A stretch of DNA of 64,000 bases from Crossiella sp. CA-258035. GTDB taxonomy: Bacteria; Actinomycetota; Actinomycetes; Mycobacteriales; Pseudonocardiaceae. The position numbers were made by a program, and so were the translations under genes. The notes below the pieces were generated by a model. It saw only the letters and a list, made by a program, of their open reading frames with translations, was not told the origin of the DNA and did not search any database. The DNA is taken from contig NZ_CP116413.1 in assembly GCF_030064675.1 (NCBI RefSeq), positions 6,418,001-6,482,000 on the forward strand, in the 5' to 3' direction. Of the stretch, positions 1,065 to 53,926 are shown piece after piece (the first letter of the stretch is position 1; every line of letters starts with the position of its first letter).

Positions 1065-1074
1065 CCCCACCGCC

Positions 1075-1186
1075 GTGTTGGCCGTTGTCGTACGGGGTGT
1101 TGGCCATTGTCGTACGGGGTGTTGGCCGTTATGGCCCACCCCGGCCGCCCACAACGGCCAACACCCCGTACAAGTTCGGCCAACAC
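1075..1186. repeat. 22-bp repeat array, three direct plus two inverted units, between convergent genes
   Basis: Units of 22 bp begin at 1075, 1097 and 1119 (consensus starts gtgttggccgttgtcgtac; the third diverges after 13 bases). Inverted units end at 1164 (partial) and 1186. The two orientations can pair into a large hairpin around position 1145. It sits between two stop codons, so it may terminate transcription from both sides. There is no poly-T run. Confidence 0.7.
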
Positions 1187-1204
1187 GGCGGGTGGGGTCT
1201 CGCG

Positions 1205-27453: not shown

Positions 27454-28036
27454 CCAGCGGCTGGCTCAGTCGGCTGGCTCAGAACGGGCCGAATCGCCAC
27501 GAGCCGAGCGGACGCCGCCGGAACACTTCCCGACCACGCTCACCCCAACTGCGCCACCCCAACTGCGCCACGCCGACCGACCCCGCGCCGACGTCGACCG
27601 AACCCACGCCGAGCCCACGCCGACCGACCCCGCGCCGACGTCGATCGAGCCCGCGCCGCGCCAGCCCAGCCAGGCCGACCTCAGCCAGCCGCCCAGCCAG
27701 ACCAAGCCCAGTTCGACCGAACCCACACGGCCCAAGCCGGCGCGGATCGAGCCCATCCAGCGCGGATCGGTCCATCCAGGCCCGTCCAGCGCGGCATCCC
27801 AGGCCCGGCCAGCGCCGCATCGGTCCGTGCACGCGCGGACCAGTCCATCCTGCGCGGGCCACTGCACGCCGCGCCGGCCACCGCACGTCGCCCGGGCCGC
27901 TACCCCGCCCCGGCCGCTACATCCCGCGTGAGCCGCTACCCCGCGTGAGCCGCTACCCCGCGTGGGCTGCTGCGAGCCGCGTGGGCCGTTGCATGCCGCG
28001 TGCGCAGCCGCGTCTCGCTTCCCGCGGCCTCCGCTG
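27454..28036. other. Gene-free, strongly C-biased tract with degenerate repeats
   Basis: About 580 bp, C-rich on the plus strand (G-rich on the minus strand), with imperfect short repeats: gaccgaccccgcgccgacgt occurs twice (about 27575 and 27625) and ccgctaccccgcgtgag recurs near 27930-27960. Open frames are low complexity and show no family. The tract abuts the 74-bp repeat at 28037. Confidence 0.65.
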
Positions 28037-28110
28037 CCCCGCCCGCGCCTCCGCTTCCTCTGCGGAACGCTTTTCAAGCCGAAAAGGTTGCTTTCCGTCT
28101 TGATCTTCGG
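28037..28110 (-). repeat. 74-bp dispersed repeat, copy 1
   Basis: Identical base for base to the reverse complement of 50898-50971. Read on the minus strand it begins ccgaagatcaagacgg, then has stem-loops cttttc-ggctt-gaaaag and tccgc-n7-gcgga, and continues into the G-rich tract. Its downstream neighbour in coordinate is a small hairpin (28114-28134) after the membrane-protein gene. Confidence 0.85.
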
Positions 28111-28167
28111 GCCAGACCCGGCCGGGCTGGGTCTCATCCGGTCCGTTCTGCGCGTCGAACCGTCGCC

Positions 28168-28803
28168 TCAGCCGAGGCTGGTGACGAACTTGGCTACCGC
28201 GTCGGGGCGGAGGCGTTGGGCCATTCTGCCCTGGGGAGCGAGGCTGGCCAGGCGGTATAGGGGGCGGTCTGGGGCGGCGTCGCCGCGGGCCTCGGCGCGG
28301 AGCTGGGCCACCAGTAGTTCGGAGTAGACCAGGGCGTGGGCTTCGCCCGCCGTGGCCAGGACGTCGGCCAGGCGGCGCAGGGCCAGGATGCCCAGTTCGC
28401 GGCCGCCGACGCCGGCGTAGGTGGCCAGGGCGAGGTTGAGGGTCTGGTTCTTCGGGGGGCCGGAGACCAGCAGGCCTACGGTGCGGGCGCCGCGGACGTC
28501 GGTGACCAGCAGTTCCAGCCGGCCGGCGGCGCGCAGGTCGACGCGGCGGGTGCCGATCGCGCGGACCGACACCACGCCGTCCTGCAGCCACACCTTGCGC
28601 CGGGCCTCGGTGACCGCGAGCAGCACCAGCGGCAGCGCGACGATCGCCGCCGCGATCAAACCGACCACCGCGCCGCCGAAGAGCCCGAACAGGCCGCCGA
28701 GGGCTCCGCCCAGCAGCACCGCGCCGATGGCCACCGCGCCGGCCCGTTTGCGCAGCAGCGCGGAGTCCAGCAGGTTCAGCGGGATCCGTTCGCCGGGAGT
28801 CAC
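28168..28803 (-). CDS. Hypothetical membrane protein coupled to hisS
   Basis: A 211-residue protein with two close membrane segments (about residues 22-62, rich in Gly/Ala/Leu/Val) after a short basic N-terminus, followed by a cytoplasmic domain of about 140 residues ([20 protein letters not shown] through [10 protein letters not shown]). It resembles actinobacterial PH-like membrane proteins but no family is certain. GTG 28803 overlaps the hisS stop as GTGA, so it is translated with hisS. Function unknown. Confidence 0.7.
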
Positions 28804-49677: not shown

Positions 49678-50556
49678 GTGCCGCGAGTAGCGGTGATCGG
49701 CTACGCCAGTGTCGACCACGCCATGGAGACCGACCCGTTCCTGGCCGCGACCGGCACCACCCTGGTCCGCCGCCGCCTGTCCCACCCCTGGCCCCACCTG
49801 GGCGGCATCACCTACGCCGCCGAGGGCCTGACCAATGCCGGCCACGACGTCCGCGCGGTCACCTGGGTAGGCCAGGACACCTTCGGCGCGGCCTACACCG
49901 AACGGCTCGCCGCCTGGGGCGTGGACGTCTCCGGGGTCGACCAGAGCGGCGACCGCACCCCGTCGAACTTCCTGTTCTACGCCCCCGACGAACAACTCGT
50001 CACCGTCTACGACCCCGGCGAACCGGTCCCGGACTCCCTGACCGAGACCCAGCGCGCGGTCATCGCCGACAGCGACTGGGTCTGCCTCCTGGTCGGCCCC
50101 CGCCCCGTCACGGTCGAGATCCTGGACCTCCTCCGCCCGGAACAACACCTGGCCTGGACCGTCAAGGACGACCCGGACGCCTACCCCGGCGGCCTGGTCC
50201 ACCGCCTGTTGTCCCGAGCCTCCGTCCTCACTTTCTCCACCAGGGAAAGACTGTTCCTGGAACGCGCGGTAGCCCCCCGCCCATTACGCGACCGCACCAG
50301 GCCCGAGTCCCTGCGCGCGGAAACACAAGGACCCGCGGGCGCCCAGTTCTGGCACAACGGCACCTCGGGCGCGGTGGGGGCGACGGCGATCGAGGCGGTG
50401 GACACGACGGGCGCGGGGGATGTGTTCTTCGCGGCGGCGGTGGCGAGCATGATCGAGTCCCCGGCGGAGCCGCGGCTGGCGACGGAGGCGGGGGTGGCGG
50501 CGGCGACGGCGTTGCTGCGGTGCCGGAAGGACTCGACGGAGGGCAAGGTCTGCTGA
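49678..50556 (+). CDS. PfkB/ribokinase-family sugar kinase-like protein
   Basis: A 292-residue PfkB-fold protein. The C-terminal ATP/anion-hole motif is AVDTTGAGDVFFAAAVASM with the catalytic Asp; the N-terminal signature is PHLGGITYAAEGLTNAGHDV. It would phosphorylate a sugar or nucleoside. GTG 49678 has GGGAG five bases upstream. Neighbouring genes give no pathway. Followed by a 766-bp gene-free G-rich tract. Confidence 0.82.
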   Translation: MPRVAVIGYASVDHAMETDPFLAATGTTLVRRRLSHPWPHLGGITYAAEGLTNAGHDVRAVTWVGQDTFGAAYTERLAAWGVDVSGVDQSGDRTPSNFLFYAPDEQLVTVYDPGEPVPDSLTETQRAVIADSDWVCLLVGPRPVTVEILDLLRPEQHLAWTVKDDPDAYPGGLVHRLLSRASVLTFSTRERLFLERAVAPRPLRDRTRPESLRAETQGPAGAQFWHNGTSGAVGATAIEAVDTTGAGDVFFAAAVASMIESPAEPRLATEAGVAAATALLRCRKDSTEGKVC

Positions 50557-51322
50557 GCGGGTGCTCGCGGGGGCGAGTGCGCGAGGGGCGAGTGCGTAGG
50601 CAGCGGGTGCTCGCGGGTAGTGGGTGCGCGGGGGCGGGCTCGCGGGCGGGCGGCGCGTTGGCTGGGCTCGCGGCGGGCTGGGCGGGCGGTTGAACCGGGA
50701 CGCGGGCGGTGGGGTGAGCTCGTGGGCGGTGCGTGGCGGCGTGTGCGGAGCAGCCGGGCGGCGGGCGGCGCGCGCGGGTGGCGGCAGGCTTGGGGCGGTT
50801 CGCAGAGGGGCTGGCAGCGGGCAGGCGAGGCTTGCGGATCGCGGCGGGTTAGTCTCGGTTCGCGGCGATCGGTCAGGCCCGGTCACGCTCCGCGAAGCCG
50901 AAGATCAAGACGGAAAGCAACCTTTTCGGCTTGAAAAGCGTTCCGCAGAGGAAGCGGAGGCGCGGGCGGGGGAAACAGCGGGCCAGCGCGGGCGAGCCTG
51001 AGCGAGCACGGATCGGGTCGGCCCGGGGTTCGCCCTGGTCAGGGAGCCCGGACAGCAGGACCGGAGCGTCGCGGGTCGGCTCGGAGCGGCGCGGCTGGGC
51101 TCGGAGCGGCGTGGGGCGACAGCGCGCGGGTGGTCGGCAGCGCGCCGGGGGCTCGGGTCGCTGGGCTCAGGTCGCTGGGTTCGGAGCGGCGGGCTCGGGC
51201 ATGGCACGGGCAGGGGCAGCCCGGCAAGGTCGGGCGGGGATGCTTCGCGGCGGCTGGGCGTGGCGCGCGGGGCGGTCCGGGGTACGGCGGGGCGGGGCGG
51301 GCGGCGCGCATAGGCTCGGTGG
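50557..51322. other. Gene-free, strongly G-biased tract around repeat copy 2
   Basis: 766 bp with G far exceeding C on the plus strand, apart from the AT-richer 74-bp repeat at 50898-50971. Short repeats such as gggctcggagcggcg recur near 51085-51110. Open frames here are Gly/Arg/Trp-rich artefacts without a family. The tract ends at the PPOX gene start. Confidence 0.65.
50898..50971 (+). repeat. 74-bp dispersed repeat, copy 2
   Basis: Identical to the reverse complement of 28037-28110. Stem-loop 1: cttttc (50922-50927) with gaaaag (50933-50938). Stem-loop 2: tccgc (50942-50946) with gcgga (50954-50958). The G-rich tract continues on its 3' side, as in copy 1; here it also occurs on the 5' side. 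Confidence 0.85.
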
Positions 51323-53788: not shown

Positions 53789-53926
53789 GCGGTGGATTGT
53801 GTGATTTGGTTTGGGGCCCCTAGGCCATCCCGGATTGGGCTGACGGGGCAGGCGGTGAGGCCCGCCCAATCGCTGGGCTAGCTTATGGGATGGCCTCCCC
53901 CCAAACAAAATCACACAATCCACCGC
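53789..53926. mobile_element. MITE-like long inverted repeat, 138 bp
   Basis: The left arm 53789-53831 begins gcggtggattgtgtgattt and the right arm 53887-53926 is its reverse complement: 19 identical bases, one mismatch, 8 identical, a short bulge, then aggccatccc identical. An inner pair, gattgggc (53833-53840) and gcccaatc (53864-53871), extends the fold. No target duplication or coding capacity is evident, so a non-mobile regulatory hairpin is the alternative. Confidence 0.55.

What the first reader, a model, noticed from the sequence alone, without database searches (positions are those of the whole stretch)
28037..28110. A 74-bp sequence repeated base-perfect in inverted orientation 22.8 kb away, with RNA-like stem-loops
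Positions 28037-28110 equal the reverse complement of 50898-50971 over all 74 bases, in otherwise divergent non-coding DNA. The core is AT-richer than its surroundings and folds as two tandem stem-loops (6-bp and 5-bp stems). Perfect identity suggests recent copying or strong selection: a small RNA family, a protein-binding or recombination site, or a mobile non-coding element. I do not know a named family for it. I also recall similar residues in spurious ORFs of related actinomycetes, but that is memory, not evidence.
Basis: partly seen in the sequence, partly recalled or inferred. Interest (0 to 1): 0.78.

Follow-up and report, generated by a model that had tools for sequence, protein, structure and literature searches.

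The report
Repeated element after gene ends
The 74-base repeat is one of about a dozen copies of an apparently undescribed DNA element that lies between genes, usually just behind a gene and facing the same way, in the bacterial genus Crossiella and in altered form in a related genus; it may act where transcripts end, but this is untested.

Summary
In detail: 28037-28110 is the reverse complement of 50898-50971 over 74 of 74 bases. A second assembly of the species has both copies, so it is no assembly duplication. The repeat belongs to a family: 13 hits below E 1e-8 in this genome, 68 in five Crossiella genomes. A diverged form with inverted DnaA-box-like sites occurs in another genus, g8 (21 of 24 genomes). 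Scanned loci gave no Rfam match at threshold. Of 35 full-length g8 copies held, 33 follow a gene read in the same direction, 4-226 nt behind its stop, while the next gene points either way (16 of 34). Crossiella's bias is weaker (25 of 36). In 23 related pairs the core is more alike than its flanks, partly because copies were found by the core. Best reading, inferred: a gene-3'-end element acting on transcript ends; the two window copies were made alike by recent copying or conversion. A fold common to all classes is not supported. The boldest reading, a DnaA-linked 3'-end roadblock, fits only the g8 form.

The parts
28037..28110 (-). copy 1 of the element core (74 nt, class B); sense strand taken as -
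   Evidence: exact reverse complement of 50898-50971; R1 hit G000:C1:6446036-6446108, E 2.4e-19 (it is one of the model's own seeds)
50898..50971 (+). copy 2 of the element core (74 nt, class B)
   Evidence: R1 hit G000:C1:6468899-6468971, E 4.6e-19 (also a seed)
50901..50906 (+). AAGATC near the 5' end of copy 2; also at the 5' end of some g8 copies
   Evidence: alignments A5 and A7
50917..50922 (+). GCAACC motif
   Evidence: invariant in the 40 rows of A5; GGAAC in 13 of 13 rows of A6, g8
50922..50938 (+). CTTTTC-GGCTT-GAAAAG stem-loop, favoured over shuffles in class B only
50939..50956 (+). CGTTCC-GCAGA-GGAAGCG, conserved block that can form a stem-loop in Crossiella
50957..50971 (+). G-rich end of the core on the sense strand
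   Evidence: g8 and G175 forms also end G-rich (by eye)
28168..28803 (-). gene upstream of copy 1, same direction as the element; no Pfam match; 57 nt between its stop codon and the 74-mer
49678..50556 (+). PfkB gene upstream of copy 2, same direction as the element
27454..28167 (.). 714-bp GC-skewed intergenic spacer that holds copy 1
50557..51322 (.). 766-bp GC-skewed intergenic spacer that holds copy 2

Best explanation
The 74-mer is the core of a lineage-specific gene-3'-end element. Shown: it is a multi-copy intergenic family; related copies keep the core while flanks drift; copies tend to lie just downstream of a gene in that gene's direction, with no preference for the direction of the next gene. 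Inferred: it works in cis at the end of the upstream transcription unit, as a termination, pausing or 3'-end processing signal built on a linear motif (GGNAACC...CGTTsCG...RGGAA, then a G-rich sense strand), not as a promoter or riboswitch of the next gene. Also inferred: the perfect identity of the two window copies comes from recent copying or gene conversion within the species.
For: g8: 33 of 35 full-length copies held follow a co-directional gene, stop to GAGTT 4-226 nt, in 11 upstream-gene groups not joined by blastp; next gene co-directional in 16 of 34. Left-half copies in 3-kb loci from five genera: 9 of 9 co-directional, seven at 3-37 nt, two at 521 and 639 nt; next gene co-directional in 3 of 9 (a cruder gene caller). 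Crossiella: 25 of 36 follow a co-directional gene (G000 11 of 13, G002 12 of 19, G003 2 of 4), next gene co-directional in 15 of 34. Core identity in 23 related pairs 0.88-1.00; upstream 200 bases 0.45-0.94, downstream 200 bases 0.46-0.90; the 10-base profile is 0.92-1.00 over the core, about 0.73-0.86 upstream and about 0.5-0.65 from 90 bases downstream. The same upstream-gene groups carry the element in several genomes. No replication-strand bias, 7 of 14 copies, oriC assumed near the contig ends. In G175 the shared left half is followed by a GC hairpin and TTTG, like a terminator (by eye).
Against: The terminator scan found none at either window site. 11 of 36 Crossiella copies follow a gene on the other strand. 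Secondary structure is not favoured over the whole family. Core conservation is partly built in, since copies were found and anchored by the core. No transcript data. Related species have compact versions of both window sites without the element, so it is dispensable there.
Confidence: 0.4

Rival explanations
1. A non-autonomous mobile or self-copying repeat (REP/ERIC/MITE-like) that settles mostly behind genes and is moved by an unidentified enzyme.
For: Interspersed family with sub-classes; identical pair 22.8 kb apart; copy 1 is in both assemblies of this species and not in the stretches read at that site in G001, G002 and G003; copy 2 is absent from the compact G001 site.
Against: Flanks of the copies are not alike; the copy-2 site differs from the G001 site by about 0.7 kb of spacer, and no clean junction or target duplication was seen at either site; several sites carry the element in more than one species; no match in plasmid or phage records.
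Confidence: 0.27
2. A double-stranded DNA site for a protein (DnaA in the g8 form, something else in Crossiella) that blocks or steers RNA polymerase at gene ends.
For: Conservation is largely linear; the 31 full-length g8 copies aligned all carry TTRTCCACAG and an inverted partner; DnaA is described as a roadblock that promotes termination (PMC11317965, passage read; Schaefer and Messer as cited in PMC10950094, passages read).
Against: The Crossiella 74-mer has no such box; the g8 model was built partly from copies found by a pattern holding the box, though 8 of the 10 g8 loci found by the right half alone carry it (L114 does not, L123 looks like a chance hit); one search also lists g8 matches to the right half only; E. 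coli DnaA prefers pairs 2-3 bp apart.
Confidence: 0.18
3. A small trans-acting RNA family.
For: A TAGNCT sequence like a -10 element lies in g8 and many G175 copies (by eye); multi-copy; the - strand of copy 1 folds with z -2.9.
Against: No promoter-like site at the two window spacers; no Rfam match at threshold in the loci scanned; the loop test fails in three of four groups.
Confidence: 0.1

Closest known systems
REP/REPIN and ERIC-type intergenic repeats (recalled)
   Same: short, interspersed, extragenic, partly palindromic, often behind genes
   Different: no conserved GTAG column in the alignments; seen in full in two genera only; a preferred direction relative to the upstream gene
Intrinsic transcription terminator
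   Same: place and direction; a block that can form a hairpin, then a strand-asymmetric tract
   Different: the tract is G-rich, not T-rich; long linear conservation
DnaA-box roadblock termination (E. coli; passages in PMC11317965 and PMC10950094)
   Same: g8 relatives hold TTRTCCACA boxes shortly behind stop codons, mostly in one direction
   Different: box absent from the Crossiella 74-mer; box spacing differs; binding untested

Membership tests
REP/REPIN | conserved GTAG tetranucleotide beside the palindrome (recalled) | tested here: not met
   not a conserved column in A5 or A7
REP/REPIN | associated RAYT (Y1) transposase (recalled) | not tested
   no search for Y1 transposases was made
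MITE | terminal inverted repeats and target-site duplication (recalled) | tested here: inconclusive
   no alike ends or flanks among 8 own-genome copies; compact sites give no clean junction
Intrinsic terminator | GC stem followed by a T tract | tested here: not met
   0 found at both window sites
Structured RNA family in Rfam 15 | score at or above the gathering threshold | tested here: not met
   window and 12 loci: 0; 23 further loci at E<=1 gave 3 sub-threshold matches, all outside the elements
Structured RNA (any) | fold more stable than shuffles in every sub-class | tested here: not met
   loop P2: class B z -3.2, others +0.6, -0.4, +1.4; P3: Crossiella z -4.2 (n=8), g8 +0.5 (n=12); a 5' hairpin anchored on TCACCCGAT, class B left out, z -7.2 (n=31), unanchored windows best z -2.2 (n=55)
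DnaA-box element | TTRTCCACA present (recalled consensus) | tested here: not met
   absent from the 74-mer (sequence); present in the 31 g8 rows of A7
DnaA-box element | DnaA binds it | not testable with these tools
   needs ChIP or EMSA

The most novel reading that the evidence does not exclude
A dispersed 3'-end control system of actinomycetes in which the replication initiator DnaA, bound to a box a few bases behind stop codons, stops RNA polymerase in one direction and so ties read-through at many unrelated genes to the replication state; Crossiella kept the right half of the element and replaced the box with other palindromes.
Probability: 0.08. Interest if true: 0.8.

Novelty: new variant of a known kind. 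Interest (0 to 1): 0.48.

Why it matters
If the element ends or processes transcripts, it would be a sequence-specific 3'-end signal without a T tract in G+C-rich actinomycetes, where canonical terminators are thought to be scarce (recalled). It comes with a motif and a list of loci that one term-seq experiment could test.

Tried and rejected
Riboswitch or promoter of the next gene: set aside, because the next gene is co-directional in only 16 of 34 (g8) and 15 of 34 (Crossiella) cases.

Conserved P2 hairpin: I first read AAAAC/GTTT against TTTTC/GAAAA as compensatory change; the shuffle test failed outside class B, so I dropped it as general evidence. One segment in the 'other' group and in the Crossiella P3 set (L148) is a chance match outside the element.

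Replication-strand site: 7 of 14 copies on the leading strand, oriC assumed near the contig ends.

Phage or plasmid origin: a 96-base query found no match in phage or plasmid records. The viral-contig pattern (0 hits) covers only the exact GGCAACC forms and would miss the window copies.

Regular spacing: four of 21 neighbour distances in G002 are 8.2-8.6 kb (scan P 0.0025, noticed before testing), one of 13 in G000 (scan P 0.94). Unexplained.

Wider distribution: (phylum pattern, 0 of 396) is void, because its spacer limit excluded the Crossiella form and it missed the own genome. (model R1, class, E<=1e-4) hit 1 of 394, the own genome.

Dropped rows: of 40 loci given, L261, L275, L276 and L295 had no pattern match and were left out of the 36; two of the 22 strong G002 copies and three of the 7 strong G003 copies were not among the loci fetched for it, and G001 and G060 were not scored there. 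L293's element overlaps a called ORF on the other strand. One search counts only g8 copies with both boxes in loci that I held. An interim note gave 34 of 36 for g8; a cruder caller gave 30 of 31 by my count; the final count is 33 of 35.

Full report
The observation. The 74 bases at 28037-28110 and 50898-50971 are exact reverse complements, 60.8% G+C in flanks of 74-79%, and come first in the list of inverted repeats of the window. Both lie in long intergenic spacers. A second assembly of the same species, G060, holds both copies with its own flanks, so this is not an assembly duplication.

The family. A DNA search of the own genome gave 10 matches. Weak hits proved to be a second class with the same motifs. 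A sequence-only model R1, built from 40 such copies (these match by construction), finds 68 hits with E below 1e-8 in five Crossiella genomes: 13 in G000, 13 in G060, 22 in G002, 13 in G001, 7 in G003. The genus name rests on an exact pattern scan of named contigs that returned 13 stretches, from Crossiella sp. S99.2 and SN42 only. Class B, to which the window copies belong, reads about AAGATCAAGAC-n-GCAACC-TTTTCnnnnnGAAAA-GCGTTCCGCAGAGGAAGCGG and a G-rich end; class A reads about TCACCCGATCGAGTGA-n-GATCCAAAC-n-GGCAACC-AAAACnnnnGTTT-n-GCGTTCCGCAGAGGAACGGTGGCGGCGGCGG.

Relatives. Of 297 genomes of the family R1 hits 23 at E up to 0.01: the five Crossiella genomes, eight of genus g8 and ten others whose matches lack the rest of the motifs by eye. 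In g8, which I take to be Amycolatopsis from its size and place only, the right half (GGGAACC-n-CGTTsCG-n-RGGAA-n-GCG, G-rich) follows a left half WWGATCnCGAG-TTGTCCACAGG-n-TGACCTGCGG-n-TAGNCTGTGGACA. A model of it, R2, matches 21 of 24 g8 genomes at E up to 0.001, some copies by the right half only, and 4 of 298 genomes of the order: two of g8, G175, and G000 once. The left half alone matches 17 of 297 family genomes in 5 genera; one genome, G175, has 36 matches with another right half, and the reversed control pattern shows none. TGACCTGCGG also stands in five Crossiella segments (by eye). R1 over the class hits 1 of 394 genomes at E up to 1e-4, the own one. Rfam gives nothing at threshold for the window and 12 loci; 23 other loci at E up to 1 gave three sub-threshold matches outside the elements.

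Place and direction. With a codon model trained on Crossiella DNA, 25 of 36 Crossiella copies follow a co-directional gene and 15 of 34 precede one. For the g8 copies with both boxes in the loci held it is 33 of 35 and 16 of 34; the stop codon lies 4-226 nt before GAGTT, in four cases exactly 4 nt. The 33 upstream genes fall into 11 blastp groups; five tested members have PDDEXK_1 with UvrD_C traces, GNAT, S9 peptidase, MnmA-type and PDDEXK_1 domains, and one short ORF has none. The codon model was not trained on g8. For left-half copies in 3-kb loci it is 9 of 9. Copies are not independent where species share a site. This ties the element to the end of the gene before it and speaks against a promoter or riboswitch for the next gene.

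Constraint and turnover. In 23 related pairs the core is 0.88-1.00 identical; the 200 bases upstream range from 0.45 to 0.94 and those downstream from 0.46 to 0.90, with a fall right at the 3' edge in the averaged profile. Some pairs are probably paralogous, and copies were found by the core, which favours core identity. At the copy-1 site G003 has no element: another gene, HesB-like by eye, starts 87 bp behind the stop; G001 and G002 have other sequence there without the element. At the copy-2 site G001 has none and about 61 bp to the next gene, against 766 bp here; G002 has a related element behind an extra ORF. So copies come and go together with spacer DNA, and I infer that the two identical window copies were made alike inside this species.

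Structure. Folds of single elements range from z -2.9 (the - strand of copy 1) to +0.8. P2 is favoured only in class B. P3 is favoured in Crossiella and not in g8. A 5' palindrome anchored on TCACCCGAT is strongly favoured (31 segments, z -7.2), less so in unanchored windows (best z -2.2). The conserved thing is mainly a linear motif; whether it is read as RNA or DNA is open.

Mechanism. I favour action in cis at transcript ends (0.4). Rivals are a mobile repeat (0.27), a protein site on DNA (0.18) and a small RNA (0.1). DnaA is described as able to stop RNA polymerase when bound within a transcribed region (PMC11317965 and PMC10950094, passages read), which makes the g8 form suggestive, but the Crossiella 74-mer has no box.

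Literature. Searches on Pseudonocardiaceae or Crossiella repeats, Amycolatopsis non-coding RNA and actinobacterial REP/ERIC/MITE were seen as listings only, the top rows of often long lists; no title or abstract start there describes this element. The library is partial.

Noticed in passing
window 53789-53816 and 53899-53926: 28-bp inverted repeat, 96% complementary, 82 nt apart.
   Followed up: no
window 1065-1196: Nested inverted repeats built of GTGTTGGCC-like units, 38-46 nt arms.
   Followed up: no
G175, e.g. L206, L221, L248, L251-L260: 36 exact matches of a TTRTCCACAG...TGACCTGC module, where scored behind co-directional genes, typically followed by TAGACTGGAGCGGGGTCAGCCCCCAGGGTGGGTGGGGCTTTG; looks like a separate expanded element.
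   Followed up: partly
G002 copies at 4018206/4026377, 5994903/6003193, 6031552/6040174, 8463514/8472142: Four neighbouring pairs of elements 8.2-8.6 kb apart.
   Followed up: partly
L273 (G000:C1:9166570): One copy near the contig end lies beside rsmG-like and jag-like ORFs (named from recall), on the strand opposite to its neighbours.
   Followed up: no
spacers around both window copies: GC-skewed, short-word repetitive spacer DNA that differs clearly between two assemblies of one species.
   Followed up: partly
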